This document shows, one piece after another, positions 28,936 through 41,786 of a stretch of DNA of 64,000 bases. Under the pieces are notes generated by a model. It was not told the origin of the DNA. It made no database searches and was given only the letters and a program-made list of their open reading frames with translations. Numbering within the stretch: position 1 is the stretch's first letter; the number at the start of each line of letters is the position of its first letter. The position numbers and the translations under genes are program-made. This stretch comes from an uncultured Lachnospiraceae bacterium (GTDB lineage Bacteria > Bacillota > Clostridia > Lachnospirales > Lachnospiraceae): positions 1-64,000 of the forward strand of contig CACZFI010000009.1 in the NCBI GenBank assembly GCA_902780405.1. The letters run 5' to 3'.

Positions 28936-31494
28936 TCATTGTTCAGTTTTAATCCACATCGCAGGTCTTACACCAAAACTATAATCTCCGTAATGACCGT
29001 CTCGCGCGTCAACAACCCATTTTCCATCATACCATTTAACATAATCATAGCGATCAGCATGACCATTATCCTGCGATCTGATCCACCACCACGTACCGCC
29101 ATCATCTCCATTATAGTTGGCAGATGTCTCCGCTACAATCGAGGACTGTGCGCGAAGCTCCGGATTATACTCCCTTATCTCATCCACGCTAAGGCAGAAT
29201 ATTTTGTCGTCTGTATCTCCTCCTTTATTACTAATAGTCGATTCCAGAATATACTCCGATTGTTCATCAGAAAATGCATCGTTATAAAAAGAATCATTTA
29301 GCCACTGCCTCAAATCACTGTTTTTCCAATCAGAGGAAGCCTTCACTTCATTATCCATCGACTTTCTTGCCAAGACATATTTTGAAACCACTAATGCTCT
29401 ATCCTCTTGAACACCTATTACGACCCATTCGATTGGTTCTCCTCTATACTCTCCAAGCAAGAATTCATCATGGAGTTTCGGTGACACATACGCACATTTC
29501 TTGTAATACTCATCAGCATCCTTATAGCCCTGCAGCGTCTCAAACAAGCTCTTCGCCTCAACAAGATTTCCGGAATTATAAGCATTTACAGCATCATTGT
29601 ACGTATTATGCTTTTTAATCGACGGAATAGCTACAAGCACAGCATACAGACATGCCAGAATAGTTACAACAACAGCCGTTATTCCTATAAGCGTTCTTCT
29701 TATTATTTTCTTCTTTCTTTCCTGCCTCTCCCTTTCTGCCTGTGCCAACGCCTCAGCCGTTCGTCTCTGCTCCTCCTCAATCACACTTCGTAATCTTCCT
29801 TCTTCCTCCGCAGCTTGAGCCACATAAAGCTTTGCTTCCTTGTAATCACCCAATCCAAGAAACATCTGCTTAGTTGACTGAAAGTCCTCCAACGAGCGTG
29901 CAACTTTAAACCGTTCACACGCCATTTGATAATTGGCTTCCCTTGAATCTATAGCCGTTTTATGTTGTTCAACAATTTGAGCATCGGCTTCGTTCACAAA
30001 AGCATTATATGCTTCTATGAGGTCATTTCTATGCTTTTCATCATCTGCCGCAGCCACAGAAATCCTGCGATCCAGTTCTGCCGTCATTTTCCTTACTGCG
30101 CCCTCTATCAGTTCAGCAGTTTTTCCACGCGCATGTTGACGGGCACGCAAATAGTATTTCTCGGCGTTAAGTGCTTTTAACGTCCTTTCCTTTTGTTCCT
30201 TTCGCGATGCCAATTCCGATGTGTAGAATCGGTTGAACGCATACATCTTCCTAATTTGATTCTCATTCAAATAGTGTTCAACCGCATACTGACTAATCAT
30301 TGACGAAATATGCGCCTCATTCATCGGGCACGCCTCAAGTGTTTCAGCAAGTACTTCATCACTCGGTCCAGAATACACGCTAAGTAAATCATCCAGCTTG
30401 TATCTGTGAATCTTAGCAAGCCACTTTCCGAGTAAAGCATCACCATTTTCAGCTTCCTGATTCAGTGCACTTTCAAAGAACTCATCAGCCTTCTTCCACT
30501 CACCATCCTCAAGCGCCTGATTTCCACGCTTAATCAACTGATCAACATTTGCCGATGCCACCACCGACTGTTGAACTGTTGCCGGTTGTTCCGCTCTGTC
30601 TCTTCCGAGTATTTTACCAATCCCTCGTAACAGATCTTGGATCGCGCCTACTTTTCCCATATCCTGGGCCTGGAGGTGCTTAAACTCCTTGGGCATGTCA
30701 TAAGCATCCAAATCCTTATAGCAAGGGATCAGAGTCTTCTTTTGTCCCGCTGCAATCAGCTGCAAGAATCTACTCCACTCGTTTTTTACCCAAACTGCAT
30801 TATAGTAATCGTAGGATGTTCCGAAAGCGAGCATAATCTTCGCAGAGTTTAAGGCAGCGAAAATATAAGGCTCATATTCTTGTCCCAATTTGTCCTCCAA
30901 GGAAATCCTCGAGAAGAACACACGGTAGCCTTTTTCAGTCAGCGCATCATATACATCCTGAGCGATTACACTATCAATGGTTCTCTGCCCATCCTCTGCA
31001 GTTTCCTTGTAGCAGATAAAGATATCATAAGGTTCTTCTGTCGAAGAAATCGTAATGATACCCTTTCGGATTTCTTCAATCTTCTTTGCTTCCTCGCGGT
31101 ATACGCCACGCGCGAGCGTATCCGAATTCTCCATAACCTGCTCGAAGTTGGAATCGTCCATCACACTCTCAAACGATGAACGGTGGCATGTCGGAACTCT
31201 GTTCCCTGTAGCAGGGTCATCGACATATTCAATACCATACTTACAGAGCACAAGCCCCCAGTATGCCTCTGCCTCCTCCTGGTACTCAGCAACGATGCTT
31301 TCATACACTCCGGCAGCTTTGTCAAATTCGCAATCAAAGCGAAGACGATTCGCACGCTCATATAGTTTCAAGCGCTTCTCGTCATCTGTACTCGGAATTG
31401 TCTGCTTGCTACCACAATATTCACATTCACAAATTGTTGCCCCGGCTTCGAACGCCAAGTCTCCGCCACACATTTTACACTTAAGAATAGCCAT
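28936..31494 (-). CDS. Zinc-ribbon/TPR/TIR protein 1 with DUF6273-like C-domain
   Basis: An 852-residue protein. Residues 1-35 are a zinc ribbon (KCKMCGG...CECEYCGSK), residues 40-95 are TPR-like (FDKAAGVYESIVAEYQEE), and residues 150-285 are a TIR domain with PYDIFICYKE, GYRVFFSR and AVWVKNEWSRF. The Glu of that last motif stands where SARM1 has its catalytic Glu, so NAD+ cleavage is possible. A long helical region follows, then a membrane helix (about 587-610), a TPR-like YKDADEYYKKC stretch, and a C-terminal domain (660-852) with TWWWIRSQ and FGVRPAMW, resembling DUF6273. It is 31 nt after the FRG gene, in one operon. AAAGGGG precedes the ATG. Confidence 0.85.
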   Translation of the reverse strand: MAILKCKMCGGDLAFEAGATICECEYCGSKQTIPSTDDEKRLKLYERANRLRFDCEFDKAAGVYESIVAEYQEEAEAYWGLVLCKYGIEYVDDPATGNRVPTCHRSSFESVMDDSNFEQVMENSDTLARGVYREEAKKIEEIRKGIITISSTEEPYDIFICYKETAEDGQRTIDSVIAQDVYDALTEKGYRVFFSRISLEDKLGQEYEPYIFAALNSAKIMLAFGTSYDYYNAVWVKNEWSRFLQLIAAGQKKTLIPCYKDLDAYDMPKEFKHLQAQDMGKVGAIQDLLRGIGKILGRDRAEQPATVQQSVVASANVDQLIKRGNQALEDGEWKKADEFFESALNQEAENGDALLGKWLAKIHRYKLDDLLSVYSGPSDEVLAETLEACPMNEAHISSMISQYAVEHYLNENQIRKMYAFNRFYTSELASRKEQKERTLKALNAEKYYLRARQHARGKTAELIEGAVRKMTAELDRRISVAAADDEKHRNDLIEAYNAFVNEADAQIVEQHKTAIDSREANYQMACERFKVARSLEDFQSTKQMFLGLGDYKEAKLYVAQAAEEEGRLRSVIEEEQRRTAEALAQAERERQERKKKIIRRTLIGITAVVVTILACLYAVLVAIPSIKKHNTYNDAVNAYNSGNLVEAKSLFETLQGYKDADEYYKKCAYVSPKLHDEFLLGEYRGEPIEWVVIGVQEDRALVVSKYVLARKSMDNEVKASSDWKNSDLRQWLNDSFYNDAFSDEQSEYILESTISNKGGDTDDKIFCLSVDEIREYNPELRAQSSIVAETSANYNGDDGGTWWWIRSQDNGHADRYDYVKWYDGKWVVDARDGHYGDYSFGVRPAMWIKTEQ

Positions 31495-31525
31495 TAAATA
31501 TCCCCTTTCAACCAAGTAGCGCACA

Positions 31526-32467
31526 TTACCTAAGCATTTTTAGCATTTTATTCTGTATCGTTTTCTTATCCTCTTCTGTATAATGCTTTTGGTTTTTATG
31601 CGATATTACGTGATAGAAATCCTTAAAACATGTCTGCGCAAACACGTATCCATCCTTAGTTTGAACCAACTGACTTTCAATCTTTCTCCACGGTTCCTCA
31701 GCTGTAAAATACTCATACCCTTCGAATCCGTTTTCCCGCAATCGTTTGTAATTGACAATCAGCTTAATCATGTCATCCCAATCAGGAAATAAATACTCCT
31801 TTGTTATCCCTTTTTTCAACACCAACTCTAGCAACTTCATTATTTTTTCTTTATACGGAATAGCCCGATGTTTTTTGCATTTCGGATATATAGGTAAGAT
31901 TCCTTGATCATTCACTTCGTAGCCGTGTAGAATGAACCATCCTCTCTGTCGTTGATATCTGATGTTATCAGCATTCGTCGAAAACAAGCTCGTATAATCG
32001 AAGCAGTATGGTTTCTTGGTTAACCGCAGGTTCTCCGATATTATCTTATTATTCCAGATTGCATCCATACGATTCCTTACAATTTTTCCATCACCTGTTT
32101 TCATCATTGATTCTTCAAAAGTATATAAATATCCATCTTTCGAATACATACCATCGCAAGCAAAGAATAATGCAACATTTTCATCTTCTGTCACATCCAA
32201 AATCGGTGTTTGCATCCCATAATGCTGCATAACACCAACTCTCTTAATCTGCTTCTTTGCAACTACACTTTCCGAATCTTTTTCCAAATCAATCAAGCGA
32301 AATTGTTCGAATATATCTTTATAAGCGTCATACATATAATTGACGTGTTCCGTTGCACATTTACAACAATCATTCCCTTTGCATTTTCTATACGCAGACG
32401 GAATAAAACCAAGATCACAACAATTATAATCCATATTTTCACCGCGATAGAGCTCTGCCTTTTTCAT
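31526..32467 (-). CDS. FRG-domain protein
   Basis: A 313-residue protein. It starts KKAELYRGENM, giving the YRG that names the domain, then IPSAYRKC. Near residues 82-105 it has MQHYGMQTPILDVTEDENVALFFA, whose core is the FRG hallmark QHxGxxTxxLDxT...ALFFA. The C-terminal half (190-313) is charged, helical and unrecognised. FRG proteins are frequent in defence islands and prophages; their activity is poorly known. The ATG at 32467 has GAGGTG before it. It lies between the broken TIR copy 2 and TIR gene 1. Confidence 0.75.
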   Translation of the reverse strand: MKKAELYRGENMDYNCCDLGFIPSAYRKCKGNDCCKCATEHVNYMYDAYKDIFEQFRLIDLEKDSESVVAKKQIKRVGVMQHYGMQTPILDVTEDENVALFFACDGMYSKDGYLYTFEESMMKTGDGKIVRNRMDAIWNNKIISENLRLTKKPYCFDYTSLFSTNADNIRYQRQRGWFILHGYEVNDQGILPIYPKCKKHRAIPYKEKIMKLLELVLKKGITKEYLFPDWDDMIKLIVNYKRLRENGFEGYEYFTAEEPWRKIESQLVQTKDGYVFAQTCFKDFYHVISHKNQKHYTEEDKKTIQNKMLKMLR

Positions 32468-32471
32468 CAAA

Positions 32472-32780
32472 TCACCTCTGTAAAACCGTTTTCACTCTAC
32501 TCCTTACTGACGCGATACACCCATACTTGCAAAGCACGAGACCCCAATAAGCCTCCGCCTCCTCCTGATACTCCGCAACGATACTTTCATACACACCGGC
32601 AGCCTTATCGAATTCGCAATCAAAACGGAGACGATTCGCACGCTCGTACAACTTCAAACGTTTCTCATCATCAGTACTTGGAATCGTCTGTTTGCTTCCG
32701 CAATATTCACATTCGCAAATCGTAGTTCCGGCTTCGAACGCCAAGTCTTCGCCACACATTTTACACTTTAAAACAGCCAT
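32472..32780 (-). pseudogene. Zinc-ribbon/TIR gene 2, internal-deletion remnant
   Basis: The first 90 or so codons match TIR genes 1 and 4 (zinc ribbon CKMCGEDL and CECEYCGSKQ, then TPR to LVLCKYG). Right after CKYG the sequence jumps to the very end of a TIR-4-like gene. In the next frame the DNA reads W-V-Y-R-V-S-K-E-stop, the exact last residues of TIR protein 4, while the actual frame continues 15 out-of-frame codons to a stop at 32472. About 2 kb, including the whole TIR domain, has therefore been deleted. The ATG at 32780 begins 1 nt after the RT stop, with GAGAGGG as Shine-Dalgarno, so the intact gene was coupled to the RT. Confidence 0.85.
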
Positions 32781-32781
32781 A

Positions 32782-34029
32782 TTATTCCCTCTCAATCTGC
32801 TTATCTGACAACTCCCATGTTCTATAGTCCCCTTTTTTATACTTCCAGAAGCTGTTCACAAGACTGATATACCCTGCATTCTTTATTTGCTCATATCGAA
32901 GGTTGTAATTCTTCTTCCCATATCTTCCGGTTGTTAAGTATCTGATACAGGAAACTGCGTATTCATCTATAGTTTTAAGTTGTTTATCTGTGGTTATCAC
33001 CGGAAAATACCATCTACACCATGTGATTTCTCCATTCGACGGATTATTATAGAATTTCCTCATAAAAAAACGAATATACGCTCGAATAGTCCTTTCATCA
33101 GAAGCATTTTTACTACACTTCCACCTATACAATGATTTTGCCTTTCTTTTTAGCTTACCCTTGATTTTCTGAACATTACCATCCGCAACATCGATATTTC
33201 CATCATAAAACTTAAAGCCCAAATACTCTATTTGTTCCGATGGCATCGTCTTTTTTACTTTTTTAGGATTAATCAAAAGCTTTCGTTTTGCCAACTCTTC
33301 TTGTATCACCGCTTCGCAATAATCAATCTCATCCTTCTGATATGAAAAACATATGATATCATCTGAATATCTTACATATATTATTCCATTATCTCTAAAC
33401 TTGAAGTCCATATCTGCCAGATATAAATTAGCCAAAAATCCGGAGATTGGGACTCCTGCCATTACTCCCCTTTTCTCAACGCTTTCCTTCCCACTCTCTC
33501 CAATAGCCACCGGATTTAACAATATCTTGGATAAAAAGTCATAAAACTTTGGTTCGCCAGGCAACTTAGTTTTGACCAGTTCGAGCATTTCTACCGGATC
33601 AATCGAGTTAAAATAATCATGTATATCAATCTTATATGAATAACAATTATAAATATTGATTCTTTTCGTCACATCGTAGAGTACATTTTTTACATTCCTA
33701 TTACTCCGAAAAGAATATAAGTTTTCACAAAACAAATGATCATAAGATTTAAGCAAAAATGCTATCATTTTAAATACAAACATCTCAGCATCGTTAAAAA
33801 CAAACACTTTTCTTTTTCTGTTTGTACCCTTTTTGTTTACTTCCACTAGCCTCGGAGTCGCAGGCAATGGCATTTTCATCATTCTGTTGACGACATCTAC
33901 ATATTCTTTATCTCGTATGAACTGAAATAAATCTATTATTTGCGCCGAATTCATCTTGTGGTTCAATACAATATCTGACAGGAAAGCATACCATTTTTTT
34001 TCATCCAGTAATCCATCCATTATTTCCAT
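32782..34029 (-). CDS. Reverse transcriptase, non-retron, ncRNA-associated
   Basis: A 415-residue reverse transcriptase. Palm motifs are the first Asp in SYKIDIHDYFNSID, the primer-grip/RT4 region VMAGVPISGFLANLYL, the catalytic YVRYSDDIICFS (YxDD box as YSDD) and EYLGFKFYDG. The thumb-like C-terminus has IKGKLKRKAKSLYRWK, WCRWYFPVI and YLTTGRYGKKNYNLRY. It lacks the retron NAxxH and VTG motifs, the maturase and endonuclease domains of group II introns, and the DGR-type RYMDDF. AGAGG lies 9 nt before the ATG. A structured non-coding region and a hairpin precede it, and it is coupled to the broken TIR gene 2. The closest named class cannot be decided by eye; a defence RT (UG/DRT-like or group II-like) is most plausible. 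Confidence 0.85.
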   Translation of the reverse strand: MEIMDGLLDEKKWYAFLSDIVLNHKMNSAQIIDLFQFIRDKEYVDVVNRMMKMPLPATPRLVEVNKKGTNRKRKVFVFNDAEMFVFKMIAFLLKSYDHLFCENLYSFRSNRNVKNVLYDVTKRINIYNCYSYKIDIHDYFNSIDPVEMLELVKTKLPGEPKFYDFLSKILLNPVAIGESGKESVEKRGVMAGVPISGFLANLYLADMDFKFRDNGIIYVRYSDDIICFSYQKDEIDYCEAVIQEELAKRKLLINPKKVKKTMPSEQIEYLGFKFYDGNIDVADGNVQKIKGKLKRKAKSLYRWKCSKNASDERTIRAYIRFFMRKFYNNPSNGEITWCRWYFPVITTDKQLKTIDEYAVSCIRYLTTGRYGKKNYNLRYEQIKNAGYISLVNSFWKYKKGDYRTWELSDKQIERE

Positions 34030-34046
34030 ATGTGCAATCCTCTTAT

Positions 34047-34075
34047 AAAAGGGGGCTGGTTACTTCAGCCCCCTT
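34047..34075 (-). terminator. Terminator-like hairpin between ncRNA and RT
   Basis: GGGGGCTG (34051-34058) pairs with CAGCCCCC (34066-34073) around a 7-nt loop, flanked by an A-U extension and followed on the minus strand by TTTTATAA. It lies 18 nt before the RT start. It would end a discrete ncRNA and let only some polymerases read through into the RT gene. Confidence 0.65.
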
Positions 34076-34082
34076 CATAATA

Positions 34083-34220
34083 AAACGCTAACCAAACAGA
34101 ATTTAACAGTTCTGATCTAGAACTAAACCCGATTACACACAGAATGATTGCTCGCAAAATCATCTTATATTCTGTGCTTCATCGTATGCGAGCGCTAATA
34201 ATAGCATTTGATCAGCGTTT
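34083..34220 (-). ncRNA. Candidate structured ncRNA upstream of the RT
   Basis: The 138-nt minus-strand segment is closed by two 14-nt arms, AAACGCTGATCAAA (34220-34207) and TTTGGTTAGCGTTT (34096-34083), which pair completely as RNA with two G-U pairs. Inside lie a GCTA/TAGC hairpin (34202-34205 / 34194-34197) and a bulged 12-bp hairpin (CACAGA 34176-34171 with TCTGTG 34143-34138; ATGATT 34163-34158 with AATCAT 34149-34144). The 8-nt loop of that hairpin contains TGCGAGC, able to pair with GCTCGCA at 34193-34187 (a pseudoknot). A third hairpin is AGTTCT... read AGTTCT/AGAACT (34124-34119 / 34113-34108). A GATAAT box ends about 10 nt before the first arm, but its -35 is weak. No coding frame is present. 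Confidence 0.65.
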
Positions 34221-34273: not shown

Positions 34274-34971
34274 CTAGTTCATAACCTCTTTATCATCTTC
34301 CGCCATTATTTTATACTCTTGGTCTTTTCCCATTCTGAATCTGTATCCATTATCCGGTATTTCTCCGAGAACTTCACATATTCGTCTAAGTATATAATGT
34401 GATTTGTTGGGTTTATTCAAATAAAAACTCAATCGTGAAACATTGTTATCTTTACACCAATGTGCTATCCAACCAGACAGAGGATTGGAAGAAAGTGAAG
34501 GTGCCTTAGACCACCTACTCAAGACAAAAAGGATTGCCAACTTAGGGACATCATCTTTATACAAAATCAAGTCAATCGGTTTTGCGAATTTGTTTGGATT
34601 GTATTTGTCATCGTGATTTGCTTCGTACCAATCTCTATATTCATCTCCGTAGTGCTTATTGATTATACTCTCAGCATCTAGCACTGCCGGCGCAACCCTA
34701 ATCCTATAGGCATATTCAGAAAGCGCATCGCAGTTTCGAATCAAACCGATGATTCGCGCCAAGAGATCTTCCTCGTCCTCCCAGCCTTCTTTCATCTTCC
34801 TATCTAATTCTTCTAATCTCTCTAATTCATCACATTCTTTTTGCGTCAGATCTCCGCGTTGTTTTATAATTTGAAGTGCCTCCATCCTAGATCGATCAAC
34901 CCAGCCAAGACGATTCCGCTCACGTTCAGAATTAAGGTCTTCCAATTCATCAAGTTGTTGTCCCGTCAGTT
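34274..34971 (-). pseudogene. Severed 3' part of TIR gene 3
   Basis: An open frame running from the IS left end to a TAG at 34274. The longest start-codon frame begins at TTG 34945 (223 residues), but codons continue upstream to the IS junction as TGQQLDELEDLNSERE. When the IS and one copy of the GTT duplication are removed, this frame joins exactly in phase to the end of the TIR gene at 36239-38575. It is therefore the C-terminus of that protein. It contains two similar helical segments (LTGQQLDELEDLNSE and LTQKECDELERLEELD), then an unrecognised domain with SRWSKAPSLSSNPLSGWI. It probably makes no protein now. Confidence 0.85.
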
Positions 34972-35048: not shown

Positions 35049-35330
35049 ATGTCCACTAGTAATCGTTACGATGAGGATTTCAAGCGAACCCTCGTAGAGC
35101 TTTACCACAATGGTAAGACTCAAGCCGCTCTCATCCGGGAGTACGGCGTATCTCAGACGGCTTTAAGCCGTTGGATCAAACAGTACTCCACTGTCCGGAC
35201 TGAAGACGGTGAAGTTCTCACAGCCAAGCAAGTCAAAGATCTCCAAAAGCGCATGGCTCAGCTTGAGGAAGAAAACCAAATACTAAAAAAAGCGATTGCC
35301 ATATTCACGCCACGCTCAAACAACGACTAG
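35049..35330 (+). CDS. IS3-family transposase OrfA
   Basis: A 93-residue DNA-binding protein. A helix-turn-helix of the transposase_8/IS911 OrfA type (DEDFKRTLVELYHNGKTQ, REYGVSQTALSRWIKQY) is followed by a leucine-zipper-like helix (LQKRMAQLEEENQILKKA) for multimerisation. AAAGGAGG lies 8 nt before the ATG. OrfA ends at TAG 35328-35330, but ribosomes can shift at the A7 run (35285-35291) to make the OrfAB transposase. Confidence 0.93.
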   Translation: MSTSNRYDEDFKRTLVELYHNGKTQAALIREYGVSQTALSRWIKQYSTVRTEDGEVLTAKQVKDLQKRMAQLEEENQILKKAIAIFTPRSNND

Positions 35331-36187
35331 ATGCTATTTATAAGCTGCGCGATCAGTATGATATCAAAACGCTTTGCAGAGTTCTCAGGGTACACCGGAG
35401 CACCTATTACAAGCACTTCTTTTCAAAGCCGGCGCCTCGCACCTGTGAAAATCAGGTAATCCGCAAGCATATTCTACAGATTTACACTGATTACGACAAT
35501 TCTCTCGGCGCTTACAAAATCCGTCGTGTCTTAGAACGTGATTATGGCATTTCCATCAGTCTGGGAAGAGTGTACCGACTGATGAACTCCATGAATCTTC
35601 CCAAACGATCCACTGAAAAGCCCAAGTGGAAAGGTTCCTGGAAGGATAACGGCCCCTGCATCAATCACTTGAACCAGCAATTCAATCCTAACACCCCAAA
35701 CTCCGTATGGGCAAGTGATTTTACTTACATAAAGGTAAATGGAACCTTTCATTACCTTTGTGTTGTCATAGATTTGTTCTCGCGAAAAGTCGTGGGGTGG
35801 AACATCTCCAACCGTCACGATGTTGATTTAACAAAAACTGCTTTTGAGAAGGCTTACTCCGACAGGGGCGAACCTGCTTTTGTTATGTTTCACTCGGATC
35901 AAGGATCTGAGTATACTGCTTTTACATTCCGACAGACACTGGAAAGATGCCAGGCCATCCAATCGTTTTCCAAGAAAGGTTATCCTTATGACAACGCAGT
36001 ATGCGAAAGCTTCTTTCGTCATATGAAACGGGAATGTCTCAACAGAAAGACATTCCGGAATCAGGACGAACTACGTTTATACTGCTTCGAATACATAAAT
36101 CGATACAACTCTAAACGACCTCACTCATCGCTCGGAGGTTATACTCCCGATGAAATAGAGAACTTCTACATGGAAAGGCAGGAGTAA
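35285..36187 (+). CDS. IS3-family transposase OrfB (by -1 frameshift)
   Basis: DDE integrase-core part of the transposase. The frame is open from the A7 slippery run (35285-35291) to TAA at 36187, about 300 codons, and is -1 relative to orfA; the first ATG at 35570 would cut off the N-terminal region. The catalytic residues are Asp in WASDFTYIKV, Asp in MFHSDQGSEY and Glu in NAVCESFFRHMK, with about 35 residues between the last two. The C-terminus YNSKRPHSSLGGYTPDE is typical. No defect is visible. Confidence 0.93.
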   Translation, partial: KKSDCHIHATLKQRLDAIYKLRDQYDIKTLCRVLRVHRSTYYKHFFSKPAPRTCENQVIRKHILQIYTDYDNSLGAYKIRRVLERDYGISISLGRVYRLMNSMNLPKRSTEKPKWKGSWKDNGPCINHLNQQFNPNTPNSVWASDFTYIKVNGTFHYLCVVIDLFSRKVVGWNISNRHDVDLTKTAFEKAYSDRGEPAFVMFHSDQGSEYTAFTFRQTLERCQAIQSFSKKGYPYDNAVCESFFRHMKRECLNRKTFRNQDELRLYCFEYINRYNSKRPHSSLGGYTPDEIENFYMERQE

Positions 36188-36219: not shown

Positions 36220-36246
36220 TGTGTCCATTTGCTTGACTCTATTCCA
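36220..36246 (+). repeat. IS3-family right inverted repeat
   Basis: Reads TGTGTCCA inward and ends CTATTCCA; complementary to the left repeat at 19 of 27 positions. It overlaps the final codon and stop of the truncated TIR gene 3. Confidence 0.85.
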
Positions 36247-38575
36247 GTTTTCTGCTTAACAGTTCTCGTGACAGTCGTATAGAAACATCAGAGCTCTTTT
36301 TCGTAATATAAATAATCTCATCAAGTTTTTTGCACTTAATTTCATGCTTTTTAAACGCTGCTGCCAGAATTGATTTACCGTCTACTGAATCATCATATCC
36401 TCTGGATGGTGCTTTTATAACAGGACAGGGCGGGTAAATCGGGTTTTCCGAATCAGTCGGTTCTTCCGGCAGTTGCAACGGTCCGATATTCTCCGGCGCA
36501 TTCATTAGCTGGCCATAATACTGTATCTGTGGTTTAACCAAACTATTTTTTTGCATTTTCAACATCGAGATCCTTTGGTTTAACATCTCTTTCTTTGATC
36601 CGCCAAACAATCCGAGTTGAGACATTTCCATTAGTGCACCGGCAATTTGGTTATCCAATTCTTTCATTCTGTAGTCATACTCTAGCTGTGCTTGATTGTA
36701 TGCCGTCATGATCATTGCATTATTTCTCTCAACATATTCTTTTCTCTCGTCATATTCCTTTTTTCTTACATTGTATTCCTCTGTAAGCCTGTTACACTCT
36801 GCTTTCCATGCGTCCAGTTTTTCTTTTCTTATCTGTGGCCAATTTTCTCTCAGTTCCTGGCACACTTTATTATACTTCTGGTTTTCTTCTTCCTCTCTTC
36901 TCTCACAGTCTTGTAACTCTGTCCGATACTTTTCCTCAATACGGTTAACCTCTTCATCCCCAAGTAACTTTTTTACTTCAAGATTCGCATCCATAAGAAT
37001 TTCAGTAAATTTATCTTTGGAATAATTCTGGGCTATTCTGTTTATCCTCTCTATTTCTTTTTCTGTTGCCTCTTTCACCATTTCTTTCAGTATTCCGTCA
37101 ATATCATACTTTGCGACAACAGAATCTGTGGCATACTTTTTAAACCTTTCATAATAACGATCATCAAATTCCGTTTTGGTTTTTCCGGAACGATTATCCC
37201 TTTTACAATACTCCTTTACATAATCCTTTGTAGCATCAAACTGCTGTAAGGATACAACACACGTATTATACTCCGTTGAAAAATCTTCTCGAATCGCATC
37301 CATCAGATCATCAGAGATTTGTTCTTCTAGAAAATACTCTTTTCTGATTATGCTTTTAACATCAGCTAATTCCAAAACCACCTTTTTGTTCCTAACAATG
37401 CTCTCGTCATATACTTTTGACAAAAACTCTTTTAAGCTTCGCACTTTATAATAAACCAACAGTTTTCCAAGGTATGCCTCAGCACATTTCGGATTTTGGT
37501 TTAAAACATCCTCAAATAAGCCATCCGCCTTTTGATAATCGCCATCCTCCAGTGTTATAAAGGCGCGTTCCAAAACTGCTTCCAGATTGTTTCCCGTCTT
37601 TGCAGCAACAGCATTTTCAACCGCAGCCTGAATGTCTTGCAAATCTGCTTTACTCGCGTCATTCGATTTATTGCTACCTTCTTTTCCGATTATCTTATCA
37701 ATACCACGGAGCAAGTCTTGATCCGCTCCAACTTTTCCCATATCTTGAGCTTGCAAATGTTTGAACTCTTTGGGAATGTCATACGCATCAATATCCTTAT
37801 AGCAAGGGATAAGTCTTTTTGATTTATCCTTCTCCATTAATTTCAAAAAACGGCTCCACTCGTTTTTCACCCAAACGGCATTGTAATAATCATAACTTGT
37901 TCCAAAAGCAAGCATGATCTTAGCAGAGTTTAAAGCCGCAAAAATATAAGGCTCATACTCCTGACCAAGTTTGACTTCCAAAGTGATTCGTGAAAAGAAC
38001 ACGCTATATCCCTTGTTGGTTAGAGTCTCATATACATTCTGAGCCAGAACACTGTCAATGGTTCTATTCCCATTCTCATCAGTTTCCTTGTAACAAATAA
38101 AAATATCATACGGTTCCTCTGTCGAGGACACCTCAATAATCCCTTTGCGTATTTCCTCTATCTGCTTCGCCTCTTCGCGATACACACGTCTCGAAATCGA
38201 GTCAGCGTTCTCCATCACAAGATCAAAATTCGGATCATCCATCACGCTATCAAACGACGAACGATGGCATGTCGGAATCTTTTTCTTCGTTACAGGATCG
38301 TCAACGTATTCAATACCATACTTGCAAAGCACCAATCCCCAATAAGCTTCCGCTTCTTCTTGATAATCTGCCACTATACTTTCATAAACGCCGGCAGCCT
38401 TATCAAATTCGCAATCAAAGCGAAGACGATTCGCACGCTCGTATAACTTCAAGCGTTTCTCGTCATCAGTGTTCGGAATCGTCTGCTTGCTTCCGCAGTA
38501 TTCGCACTCACAAACTGTTGATTCCGCTTCTACAGCCAGTTCTCCACCACACATTTTACATTTTAAAATCGTCAT
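36239..38575 (-). CDS. Zinc-ribbon/TPR/TIR protein 3, truncated by IS
   Basis: 778 residues remain. They comprise the zinc ribbon (KCKMCGGE, CECEYCGSK), TPR, a TIR domain (about 150-285, PYDIFICYKE, GYSVFFSR, AVWVKNEWSRF with the candidate catalytic Glu), a TPR-like repeat (YQKADGLFEDVLNQNP) and a long charged coiled coil (about 480-690). No membrane helix is seen, unlike TIR 1 and 4. The last two codons before the stop lie in the IS right end; the original gene continued into 34971-34274 for about 1007 codons in all. Its ATG overlaps the end of the RES gene by 20 nt, so the pair is translationally coupled. Confidence 0.85.
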   Translation of the reverse strand: MTILKCKMCGGELAVEAESTVCECEYCGSKQTIPNTDDEKRLKLYERANRLRFDCEFDKAAGVYESIVADYQEEAEAYWGLVLCKYGIEYVDDPVTKKKIPTCHRSSFDSVMDDPNFDLVMENADSISRRVYREEAKQIEEIRKGIIEVSSTEEPYDIFICYKETDENGNRTIDSVLAQNVYETLTNKGYSVFFSRITLEVKLGQEYEPYIFAALNSAKIMLAFGTSYDYYNAVWVKNEWSRFLKLMEKDKSKRLIPCYKDIDAYDIPKEFKHLQAQDMGKVGADQDLLRGIDKIIGKEGSNKSNDASKADLQDIQAAVENAVAAKTGNNLEAVLERAFITLEDGDYQKADGLFEDVLNQNPKCAEAYLGKLLVYYKVRSLKEFLSKVYDESIVRNKKVVLELADVKSIIRKEYFLEEQISDDLMDAIREDFSTEYNTCVVSLQQFDATKDYVKEYCKRDNRSGKTKTEFDDRYYERFKKYATDSVVAKYDIDGILKEMVKEATEKEIERINRIAQNYSKDKFTEILMDANLEVKKLLGDEEVNRIEEKYRTELQDCERREEEENQKYNKVCQELRENWPQIRKEKLDAWKAECNRLTEEYNVRKKEYDERKEYVERNNAMIMTAYNQAQLEYDYRMKELDNQIAGALMEMSQLGLFGGSKKEMLNQRISMLKMQKNSLVKPQIQYYGQLMNAPENIGPLQLPEEPTDSENPIYPPCPVIKAPSRGYDDSVDGKSILAAAFKKHEIKCKKLDEIIYITKKSSDVSIRLSRELLSRKLE

Positions 38576-39254
38576 CTGATAACCCTCCCCATTTTAATGC
38601 TTTTAATTCAGAACCCGATGCATAACACTTATCATAGTTGAAAACTACCAAATTATAGTCTGTTTCCTTTTTTGCACCATGTGAACTTGGATATATTATT
38701 CCGTCATATCCCAGTTTCTTGATATATTCGGCAATGAATTGCGTCGGAAGATAATCATCAGTATTATCAGTAGTCTCAACAGGTTTGGAGTATAAAACCG
38801 ACAAATCTATCAAAAGGTTATCTTTTACATTTCTCTTTTCAGATTTATCCTTTACCTGCCTCAAATCAAACAAAAGCATGTCCTCTTGAACCGTTATTGT
38901 TGCAATGCTAACCGTATCTACTATTCTCGGACGTGTTTCAACGACAGCCAGGTCTTTCGTTGAAGCAACATATAGATACGGAATGAATCTGTAATTTGCC
39001 CTCATGTCCTTTGTTTTGTTTTTCGGAGGAACAAAACTCTCTACCGCGTTATAACCAACGAATCCTGGATCAACACCTATCGTATTTCGGTTATCCTTAA
39101 CAACACGGCATCTATAAAACACCTGACCTGGAGGAACATTAACAAACGGATTAGTCTCTGTACTATTCAATTCCTCTAGTACGCTTGTATCCACCGGATT
39201 TCTATTTTTTTCTTTAATTTCCTTCACAAATTCCCCGAGTTTTTTTGAAATCAT
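38556..39254 (-). CDS. RES-domain protein
   Basis: A 232-residue protein with the three residues that name the domain in order: Arg in VFYRCRVVKD, Glu in DLAVVETRPRI, and Ser in IIYPSSHGAK. Supporting stretches are ATITVQEDMLLFDL and QFIAEYIKKLGYDG. Some RES proteins are toxins that destroy NAD+ (phosphorolysis). It lies directly before, and overlaps, the TIR gene 3, so two potential NAD+-consuming proteins are made from one mRNA. No Xre/DUF2384 antitoxin of the usual RES-Xre pair is next to it. The ATG at 39254 follows GGGGGG. Confidence 0.8.
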   Translation of the reverse strand: MISKKLGEFVKEIKEKNRNPVDTSVLEELNSTETNPFVNVPPGQVFYRCRVVKDNRNTIGVDPGFVGYNAVESFVPPKNKTKDMRANYRFIPYLYVASTKDLAVVETRPRIVDTVSIATITVQEDMLLFDLRQVKDKSEKRNVKDNLLIDLSVLYSKPVETTDNTDDYLPTQFIAEYIKKLGYDGIIYPSSHGAKKETDYNLVVFNYDKCYASGSELKALKWGGLSDDDFKM

Positions 39255-39339
39255 TTTATCCCCCCAAAAAAAACATCTATTGCACTTCATATAGACAACT
39301 TTTCTAAATCACATCATGCGTTGGGTCTTCAATATCCCT

Positions 39340-39413: not shown

Positions 39414-41786
39414 CTACTCCTTGCTTACTCGATACACCCATTTAAGATGCTCTCCACTCGCAGAGTCATCATACTCCTGTTCTATCACAATCAAAGAATC
39501 GCCGTCGCCCTCATACTCTACAATCCTCCATTCCATCCTGTTATCCGACACATAGCGAAAACCTCCATCACGGTAATACAATTCATATTCTCCATCGAGT
39601 TTTCCTTGATTTATTTCAAATTCTTTTCCCTTCGAAAGCTTGTTCTCTTGCCCGTTGCAAAAGCCCTTCTGACATTTCCATGTTCCCTCTAGATACATGT
39701 AATCCTTAATAATTGTGTTTTCTTGAAACACAGTAGAATCCTCTATGCTTTGTGCAAAGGGTGTCTCCATGCCACGCTCCCCCAATAACACCTCACATAG
39801 CGTTTTGTACACATTCGATTCCTTGTATCCCGCCATGTCATCGAAAGCCGTTTTCGCATCTTCATAATCCATACTTTGATAATACGAAATCGCCTTCTTG
39901 TATTGCTCCTCCTGCTCTTCGCTCGCCTTTTTCTGCTCAGAAGAAACTCGATATGAATGTATTCCCCTTATCGTTAGCGCCACGACAATCGCAATCAGAA
40001 TCGCCCCTATAATAGCGATCCATTTTCTTACTAATCTTTTTGATTCATCCCTTTTTCTCTGTATTTCAACTGACTGTTCTTTTTGTAACCTATCTATCTC
40101 AGCGTCACATTTTTTTATATATTCGGCTGAGTCTTTATATCTACGAATTCCCTGAAAAGCACTTTTTGCCGAACGATATCCATCAAGACTATTTGCCGAT
40201 TCAAAAGACGCAATCGCAGAAGAGTAATCCTTTTCCAATCTCTCCTTCGCGCCATTATATTGTTGTATGACAGCTGCATCTGTTTCGAATACGAAGCTCG
40301 CATACGACAATTTGATGTCCTCTTTTTTCTTTTTATCCTCCTCTTTAACCTCGGATATTTTGCAATCCAGATTTCGAGTCAATTGACTTACCACATCTTG
40401 GAGCGAACGCAACAATTCATCTGTCGCATATTGCTTAGTGCGCAGATACAGTTTTTCCGAGTCAAGTTCAGATAAGACTTGGTCCTTGTGCTGCATCATC
40501 GAAGAGAGCTGAGACTCGTAAGTTCTGCTAAACTTATACATACAGCGGATTTCATCCTTGCTCAAATACCCGTCAACTTCATACTCAATTGCCATGTCAC
40601 TAATATGTTTTTCATCTTCCGGACACGCTTCAAGACTCTCTGTTTCAACTTTTATATGCAGATTTTCATAATACTCAACAATCCCTGCCAAATCTCTTCT
40701 TTGCAATTTAGCAAGCCATTTCCCTAAATACGCGTGTGCATTCTCAGCATCTTGATTAAGAGCTTCCTCAAAGAACTCATCTGCCCGCGTCCATTCACTA
40801 TCCTCAAGTGCAAGCTGACCGCGTTTTAATAATTGTTCAACGTTTCCATTCTGTGACTGGTTATACTGTACTTGTACTGTTTCCACACGGTCTCTTCCAA
40901 GTATCTTATTAACACCTCTTACTAAGTCCTGAATTGCCCCTACTTTTCCCATATCCTGAGCCTGGAGATGCTTAAACTCTTTGGGCATGTCATGCGCGTC
41001 CAGATTCTTATAACAAGGGATCAGAGTCTTCTTCTGTCCCGCAGCAATCAACTGCAAGAATCTATTCCATTCATTCTTAACCCAAACAGCATTATAGTAA
41101 TCATAGGTAGTTCCAAAGGCGAGCATAACTTTCGCAGAGTTTAAGGCAGCAAAAATATAGGGCTCATATTCTTGCCCCAACTTATCCTCCAGCGTGATTC
41201 TCGAAAAGAATACATGGTAGCCCTTTTCAGTCAGCGCATCATATACATCCTGCGCAATCACACTGTCAATGGTTCTCTGCCCATCCTCCGCGGTTTCCTT
41301 GTAGCAGATAAAGATATCATACGGCTCTTCCGTTGAAGAAATCTTGATAATGTCCTTTCGGATTTCTTCAATCTTCTTTGCTTCCTCGCGGTATACGCCA
41401 CGCGCAAGCGTATCCGAATTCTCCATGACCTGCTCGAAGTTGGAGTCGTCCATCACGCTTTCAAATGATGAACGGTGACATGTCGGAACTCTGTTCCCTG
41501 TAGCAGGATCATCGACATATTCAATACCGTACTTACAGAGTACAAGCCCCCAGTACGCCTCTGCTTCCTCCTGATACTCCGCAACGATGCTTTCATACAC
41601 TCCGGCAGCTTTATCAAATTCGCAATCAAAACGAAGACGATTCGCACGCTCATAAAGCTTCAAGCGTTTCTCGTCATCAGTATTCGGAATTGTCTGCTTA
41701 CTTCCGCAATATTCACATTCACAAATCGTAGTTCCGGCTTCGAACGCCAAGTCTCCGCCGCACATTTTACACTTTAAAACAGCCAT
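39414..41786 (-). CDS. Zinc-ribbon/TPR/TIR protein 4 with lipocalin-like C-end
   Basis: A 790-residue protein. The first 300 residues are almost the same as TIR 1 (zinc ribbon, TPR, TIR with PYDIFICYKE, GYHVFFSR and AVWVKNEWNRF). A coiled-coil region (about 430-590) leads to a membrane helix (about 600-622, WIAIIGAILIAIVVALTI), a TPR-like unit (YYQSMDYEDAKTAFDDMAGY) and a C-terminal beta-rich domain (about 695-790, EGTWKCQKG, YELYYRDGGFRYVSDNRMEW). That domain resembles small lipocalin-like envelope domains and differs completely from the end of TIR 1. It follows the SPFH/membrane-protein cluster by 12 nt, so it is likely in that operon. Confidence 0.85.
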   Translation of the reverse strand: MAVLKCKMCGGDLAFEAGTTICECEYCGSKQTIPNTDDEKRLKLYERANRLRFDCEFDKAAGVYESIVAEYQEEAEAYWGLVLCKYGIEYVDDPATGNRVPTCHRSSFESVMDDSNFEQVMENSDTLARGVYREEAKKIEEIRKDIIKISSTEEPYDIFICYKETAEDGQRTIDSVIAQDVYDALTEKGYHVFFSRITLEDKLGQEYEPYIFAALNSAKVMLAFGTTYDYYNAVWVKNEWNRFLQLIAAGQKKTLIPCYKNLDAHDMPKEFKHLQAQDMGKVGAIQDLVRGVNKILGRDRVETVQVQYNQSQNGNVEQLLKRGQLALEDSEWTRADEFFEEALNQDAENAHAYLGKWLAKLQRRDLAGIVEYYENLHIKVETESLEACPEDEKHISDMAIEYEVDGYLSKDEIRCMYKFSRTYESQLSSMMQHKDQVLSELDSEKLYLRTKQYATDELLRSLQDVVSQLTRNLDCKISEVKEEDKKKKEDIKLSYASFVFETDAAVIQQYNGAKERLEKDYSSAIASFESANSLDGYRSAKSAFQGIRRYKDSAEYIKKCDAEIDRLQKEQSVEIQRKRDESKRLVRKWIAIIGAILIAIVVALTIRGIHSYRVSSEQKKASEEQEEQYKKAISYYQSMDYEDAKTAFDDMAGYKESNVYKTLCEVLLGERGMETPFAQSIEDSTVFQENTIIKDYMYLEGTWKCQKGFCNGQENKLSKGKEFEINQGKLDGEYELYYRDGGFRYVSDNRMEWRIVEYEGDGDSLIVIEQEYDDSASGEHLKWVYRVSKE

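What the first reader, a model, noticed from the sequence alone, without database searches (positions are those of the whole stretch)
32782..34220. Reverse transcriptase preceded by a compact pseudoknotted ncRNA: a possible new RT-ncRNA system
Minus strand, in order: 138-nt structured segment (34220-34083), terminator-like hairpin (34075-34047), RT start at 34029. The segment is closed by 14-nt arms that pair fully as RNA, and contains three hairpins. The loop of the middle one can pair over 7 bp with an upstream segment. This layout recalls retrons (a1/a2-flanked msr-msd before RT) and the ncRNA-using defence RTs. Yet the RT has YSDD, YLGF and no NAxxH or VTG motif, so it does not look like a retron RT. 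An RT with a dedicated template or guide RNA next to TIR, RES and FRG genes would be a new combination.
Basis: partly seen in the sequence, partly recalled or inferred. Interest (0 to 1): 0.88.

Follow-up and report, generated by a model that had tools for sequence, protein, structure and literature searches.

The report
Uncharacterised defence-type reverse transcriptase–RNA cassette
This gut-bacterium locus holds a reverse transcriptase of a catalogued but untested antiviral-type class (UG26), made together with a small folded RNA (already listed in Rfam as RT-5) and a small partner protein; the RNA probably serves as the enzyme's built-in template for making short repeated DNA, as in the recently described telomerase-like DRT10 system.

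Summary
The minus-strand segment 34220-34083 is a structured RNA with a closing helix, three hairpins and a 7-bp pseudoknot, followed by a terminator hairpin and an intact 415-aa RT. Across 99 homologues the arms and pseudoknot covary far beyond a swap null (0 of 3000 and 0 of 5000 shuffles). It is not a new RNA family or a new RT class: the RNA core is Rfam RF03026 (RT-5) and the RT is UG26 by PADLOC profile (E 1e-139, next named UG class 7e-32). The two go together: 77 of 85 UG26 loci scanned have the RNA just upstream on the same strand. TIR, RES and FRG neighbours are not conserved. The conserved partner is the ORF directly upstream of the RNA (window 34945-34274), a divergent member of the RTasCOG2852 family, present in about three quarters of loci. 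I found no experimental work on UG26 in the held library. Layout and the 11-13-nt open loop between the last hairpin and the closing helix match the template loop of class-2 UG systems (DRT3a, DRT9, DRT10). The loop carries an A-B-A' direct repeat (10-nt unit here), but evidence for its repeat-templating role is only moderate. Verdict: a real, untested class-2 DRT variant.

The parts
34274..34945 (-). Companion protein, 223 aa; divergent member of the family PADLOC calls RTasCOG2852; stops about 45 nt before the ncRNA
   Evidence: HMM built from upstream ORFs of other UG26 loci, not including this one, hits it with E 1.2e-6; profile A4 finds it as the only copy in the genome. No direct PADLOC hit and no significant Pfam hit of its own.
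34083..34220 (-). Structured ncRNA, RT-5 RNA extended by its closing helix
   Evidence: Rfam RF03026 58.5 bits at 34197-34094; own model R1 82.3 bits; fold z -3.5
34206..34220 (-). 5' arm of closing helix P1 (a1-like)
   Evidence: Fold; covarying in 89 unique homologues
34083..34097 (-). 3' arm of closing helix P1 (a2-like)
   Evidence: As above
34194..34205 (-). Hairpin P2 (GCUA...UAGC), largely outside the Rfam core
34187..34193 (-). Pseudoknot strand 1 (GCUCGCA)
   Evidence: Covariation
34150..34156 (-). Pseudoknot strand 2 in the loop of P3 (UGCGAGC)
   Evidence: Covariation
34130..34184 (-). Hairpin P3 (middle, composite)
   Evidence: 16 of 20 consensus pairs (P3 and P2) have compensatory changes
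34107..34125 (-). Hairpin P4, immediately 5' of the loop; candidate template boundary element
34095..34109 (-). Candidate template loop, A-B-A' = CTGTT-AAATT-CTGTT, 10-nt unit (A overlaps the end of P4, A' the start of P1)
   Evidence: assignment as template is inference from DRT10/DRT9/DRT3a
34047..34075 (-). Terminator-like hairpin between ncRNA and RT
   Evidence: Sequence
32782..34029 (-). Reverse transcriptase, UG26 class, 415 aa, YSDD active site
   Evidence: PADLOC RT_UG26 E 1.2e-139; Pfam RVT_1; AlphaFold pLDDT 89.6

Best explanation
The locus encodes a three-part class-2 UG (DRT-type) system: an upstream COG2852-like companion protein, the RT-5 ncRNA and a UG26 RT. Shown by sequence: the conserved order companion - ncRNA - RT on one strand, and the covarying RNA structure. 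Inferred: the RT binds the ncRNA as an RNP; the open 11-14-nt loop between hairpin P4 and the closing helix lies at the active site and is copied; P4 stops the copy; short identity between the 5' end (A) and 3' end (A') of the loop lets the new DNA slip back and be extended again. The product would be tandem-repeat single-stranded DNA, here about (AGAATTTAAC)n, probably started on a hydroxyl of the RT's C-terminal region, and used in anti-phage defence with the companion protein as regulator or effector. RNP formation is likely (about 0.85), template use likely (about 0.7), repeat synthesis moderately likely (about 0.55), and the role of the companion is open.
For: RT is UG26 by a margin of about 350 bits, and a tree puts UG26 apart from group II RTs (SH-aLRT 99) with UG17 (= DRT10) and UG27 on its side. 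Linkage: all but one of 33 RT-5 hits in one bacterial family lie beside a UG26 RT, and the exception is on a contig end; 77 of 85 UG26 loci have the RNA, always RT-oriented and upstream. Covarying P1 and pseudoknot and P2/P3. The layout (closing helix, inner hairpins, last hairpin directly 5' of the loop) is that reported for DRT10, DRT9 and DRT3a, whose templates sit in this loop (PMC12632851; PMC12483538; PMC13174585). Loop length is 11-13 nt in 90 of 95 and one A is invariant. A-A' identity of at least 3 nt in 74% against 49% when the 3' part of the loop is shuffled, and of at least 5 nt in 15% against 7% when 3' parts are swapped between RNAs (5 of 3000). Foldseek hits include DRT9. The companion's stop codon lies a median of 3 nt from the RNA model start.
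Against: A-A' identity of at least 3 nt is not above the swap null (74% against 77%), so most of the repeat is a shared consensus (UUYAAA...UUU) rather than proven co-change. In the window's two nearest relatives A' is shorter and less convincing. No transcript, cDNA or defence data exist. The C-terminal Tyr pair common in the family is Phe-Trp here. About a quarter of loci lack the companion, and a few UG26 RTs have no detectable RT-5 RNA.
Confidence: 0.62

Rival explanations
1. The RNA is a protein-binding scaffold or activator but not a template; the RT makes untemplated or otherwise templated DNA.
For: The loop sequence is fairly conserved (UUYAAA core), as expected of a recognition element; co-change of A and A' is weak.
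Against: Class-2 UG RTs studied so far copy the ncRNA (PMC13174585); conserved loops in DRT9 and DRT3a are templates too.
Confidence: 0.2
2. The RNA is a cis-regulatory leader or attenuator of the RT gene (riboswitch-like), with the hairpin 34075-34047 as its terminator.
For: A terminator-like hairpin follows the RNA and precedes the RT start.
Against: In many homologues the RNA runs almost into the RT start, leaving little or no room for a terminator; the strict bond to one RT class fits an RNP.
Confidence: 0.1
3. A divergent retron: the arms are a1/a2 and the RT makes branched msDNA.
For: Inverted arms flank the RNA, and the RNA lies just upstream of the RT.
Against: Retron RT motifs VTG and NAxxH are absent from the window RT and rare in 110 homologues; best profile is UG26; no long msd hairpin.
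Confidence: 0.04
4. Ordinary group II intron or maturase remnant.
For: Foldseek top hits are group II RTs.
Against: Profile, tree and a dedicated covarying RNA that is not an intron; no group II intron match in Rfam.
Confidence: 0.01

Closest known systems
Rfam RF03026, RT-5 RNA
   Same: The RNA core 34197-34094 matches the full model, 58.5 bits against a cut-off of 45.7.
   Different: The Rfam model covers 104 nt; homologues show that a closing helix (median 14 bp) and hairpin P2 belong to the RNA too.
UG26 class of UG/Abi reverse transcriptases (PADLOC RT_UG26)
   Same: Full-length profile match, E 1e-139.
   Different: The class is a name from phylogeny; no tested member found in the held library.
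DRT10 (UG17 RT + 137-nt ncRNA + SLATT protein), PMC12632851
   Same: About the same RNA length, closing helix with inner hairpins, last hairpin directly before a short loop with A-B-A' pattern, RT on the same side of the tree.
   Different: RT is not UG17 (109 bits against 463); no SLATT gene family recurs near UG26; a COG2852-like partner lies upstream instead; a pseudoknot is present; the RT-5 model does not hit a UG17 locus.
DRT9 (UG28) and DRT3a (UG3)
   Same: ncRNA-templated class-2 RTs with a conserved template in the same loop position; DRT9 among the best structural matches.
   Different: Templates there are poly-U and ACACAC; here the loop is UUYAAA-N3-UU.
RTasCOG2852 (PADLOC PDLC03793)
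   Same: 23 of 32 companion proteins match it, best E 1e-62.
   Different: The window's protein is below its detection. The most conserved residues of the wider family (N...YV..R) are not those of a PD-(D/E)xK active site, and Foldseek gives only weak TnsA/Bse634I hits.

Membership tests
Rfam RT-5 RNA | Score above the curated gathering threshold over the whole model | tested here: met
   58.5 against 45.7 bits, model positions 1-104
UG26 RT class | Best and full-length match to the UG26 profile | tested here: met
   463 bits; next named UG class 109 bits; clade support 95 in the tree
DRT (functional anti-phage RT system) | RT-dependent protection against phage | not testable with these tools
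   Needs an experiment; only the class label and a locus with TIR, RES and FRG genes argue for it
DRT10 | UG17 RT | tested here: not met
DRT10 | Adjacent SLATT-domain gene | tested here: not met
   No recurring family other than the COG2852-like companion in 80 loci; companion does not match SLATT models
DRT10 | A-B-A' template loop just 3' of the last hairpin | tested here: inconclusive
   Present in the window; consensus-level direct repeat in homologues, but only repeats of 5 nt or more exceed the swap null
Class-2 UG systems | cis-encoded ncRNA with closing helix and inner hairpins | tested here: met
Class-2 UG systems | ncRNA is copied into repetitive DNA | not testable with these tools
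   Needs cDNA sequencing
Retron | RT motifs NAxxH and VTG | tested here: not met
   Absent in the window RT; found in 3 and 6 of 110 homologues
Retron | Inverted a1/a2 arms flanking the RNA | tested here: met
   not specific to retrons
Group II intron RT | Groups with group II RTs | tested here: not met
   Tree, SH-aLRT 99 separation

The most novel reading that the evidence does not exclude
UG26/RT-5 is a further telomerase-like antiviral machine whose pseudoknotted RNA template writes a short tandem repeat (about 10 nt, AGAATTTAAC here), with a COG2852-like companion (nuclease-like fold, probably without catalysis in most members) that senses or acts on the DNA.
Probability: 0.4. Interest if true: 0.8.

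Novelty: new variant of a known kind. Interest (0 to 1): 0.58.

Why it matters
DRT10 was proposed to share ancestry with telomerase. UG26 lies on the same side of the RT tree and carries an RNA with a pseudoknot, a feature also named for telomerase template boundaries. It would give an independent and widespread test (hundreds of relatives, mostly gut and rumen Clostridia and Bacteroidales) of whether copying a short ncRNA loop into repeats is general to class-2 UG RTs. It also gives a likely function to an orphan Rfam family (RT-5) and to an orphan partner protein. The predicted repeat is specific enough to be tested in one sequencing experiment.

Tried and rejected
Viral contigs: no UG26 relatives in two scans. 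Rfam: only the RT-5 hit in the window. Alternative pairing inside the template loop (palindromic tendency, e.g. GGTTTGAAACC) was examined by column-pair tests and is weak. Conserved C-terminal hydroxyls were listed as priming candidates (Y357 and Y379 at 99%, S389 at 81%), but model coordinates could not be measured. Foldseek of the companion gave nothing significant. The Weinberg 2017 and Mestre 2022 papers are not held, so what they say about RT-5 and UG26 rests on the Rfam and PADLOC entries and my own knowledge. TIR, RES and FRG genes as system members: rejected for lack of recurrence.

Full report
Observation. The minus strand reads, in order: ORF of 223 aa (34945-34274), structured segment (34220-34083), terminator-like hairpin (34075-34047), RT ORF of 415 aa (34029-32782). 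The P3 loop can pair with GCUCGCA upstream.

What the parts are. Rfam search gives one hit in 64 kb: RF03026, RT-5 RNA, 58.5 bits at 34197-34094. PADLOC places the RT in UG26 (E 1.2e-139), with UG17 next among the named UG classes at E 7e-32. An AlphaFold model is confident (pLDDT 89.6), and its nearest solved structures are group II RTs and DRT9. A tree separates UG26 from group II RTs found in the same bacterial family. Retron motifs are absent.

Linkage. In 397 genomes of the same family, RT-5 was found in 31 (33 hits). All but one hit lie just upstream of a UG26 RT, and the exception is at a contig end. An RT alignment (A1) found 404 relatives among bacterial genomes, of which 80 loci were kept, mostly gut and rumen Clostridia and Bacteroidales. 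A covariance model built from 30 extended RNAs hits 77 of 85 loci, in RT orientation and upstream of the RT; some of the misses are contig ends.

RNA structure. In 99 homologues a closing helix with a median of 14 bp was found (91 of 99 with 8 bp or more), outside the Rfam model. Arms from different RNAs pair much worse than true partners (5.13 against 7.55 of 8 pairs, 0 of 3000 shuffles). Six of seven pseudoknot positions pair in 96-99 of 99 RNAs and the seventh in 91, with several compensatory types (0 of 5000 shuffles). P3 and P2 pairs covary as well.

Companion. Clustering ORFs around 80 loci gave one family besides the RT that widely recurs, on the RT strand, directly upstream of the RNA. 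An iterated HMM finds it in 103 of the 140 loci held (some of these are paired fetches of one place), and by my count in 58 of the 80 genome-contig loci. Its stop codon lies a median of 3 nt from the RNA model start. PADLOC knows it as RTasCOG2852 (23 of 32 members), so its association with RTs was catalogued before. The window's ORF 34945-34274 was found by a model that did not contain it (E 1.2e-6); it is divergent and is the only copy in the genome. COG2852 is, from my own knowledge, the Vsr/DUF559 nuclease-like group. The conserved residues here (N...YV..R) are not the usual catalytic ones, so a catalytic role is doubtful for most members.

Mechanism. Published class-2 UG systems copy a loop of their ncRNA that sits beside the last hairpin: DRT10 (UG17) by an A-B-A' slippage mechanism with the last hairpin as template boundary (PMC12632851), DRT9 from a poly-U tract (PMC12483538), and DRT3a from ACACAC (PMC13174585). 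RT-5 RNAs have a loop of 11-13 nt at this place in 90 of 95, with consensus NNUUYAA(A)NNN followed by UU. The window's loop reads CTGTT-AAATT-CTGTT, a perfect A-B-A' with a 10-nt unit; A overlaps the last pairs of P4 and A' the first pairs of P1. Tested on 85 unique loops, matches of 3 nt or more are commoner than after shuffling the 3' half (74% against 49%), but not commoner than after swapping 3' halves between RNAs (77%). Only matches of 5 nt or more exceed that stricter null (15% against 7%, 5 of 3000). The direct repeat is therefore mainly a fixed feature of the family with some co-change, which fits DRT10-like slippage but does not prove it.

Known or new. RNA family, RT class and partner family were each catalogued. 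I found no experimental paper on UG26 in the held library; the two founding surveys are not held. What is added here: the joint cassette and its order, the closing helix and P2 outside the Rfam core, support by covariation, the divergent companion in this genome, and a testable template prediction.

Limits. No transcript or product data; E-values of the short-calibrated model are rough; cells in the pair counts are not independent events; three divergent UG26 relatives (L142-L144) and a few others have no RT-5 hit.

Noticed in passing
window 28936-31524, 36239-38575, 39414-41786, 32472-32795 (-): Tandem family of three large TIR/TPR proteins (60-67% identical over their shared parts) plus a 107-aa N-terminal fragment that begins right at the RT stop codon and is 87-97% identical to the others; suggests that the RT cassette sits inside a recombining TIR array.
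   Followed up: partly
window 31526-32470 and 38556-39290 (-): FRG-domain protein (also hits candidate defence family PDC-S15) and RES-domain protein, each placed directly beside a TIR copy, as if TIR copies carry exchangeable partner genes.
   Followed up: partly
window 35049-36187 (+): Transposase-type ORF and rve integrase ORF (IS3-like) between the RT cassette and the next TIR gene.
   Followed up: no
L142 626-4468 (+) (G193:C60): A divergent UG26 RT forms the C-terminal 400 aa of an open 1281-aa frame whose N-terminal part resembles a radical-SAM protein by eye; no RT-5 RNA detected there. Could be a true fusion or a lost stop.
   Followed up: partly
L085 2348-2992 and L087 2360-3001 (+): In two UG26 loci a different, mutually similar ORF of about 215 aa lies at the RNA-RT interval instead of the usual upstream companion.
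   Followed up: no
RT-5 RNAs of the Bacteroidales loci (e.g. L101, L116, L118, L136): Loop consensus GAUUCAAA followed by variable bases and a UCCCC arm, unlike UUUAA in many Clostridia; a second template type if the loop is copied.
   Followed up: partly
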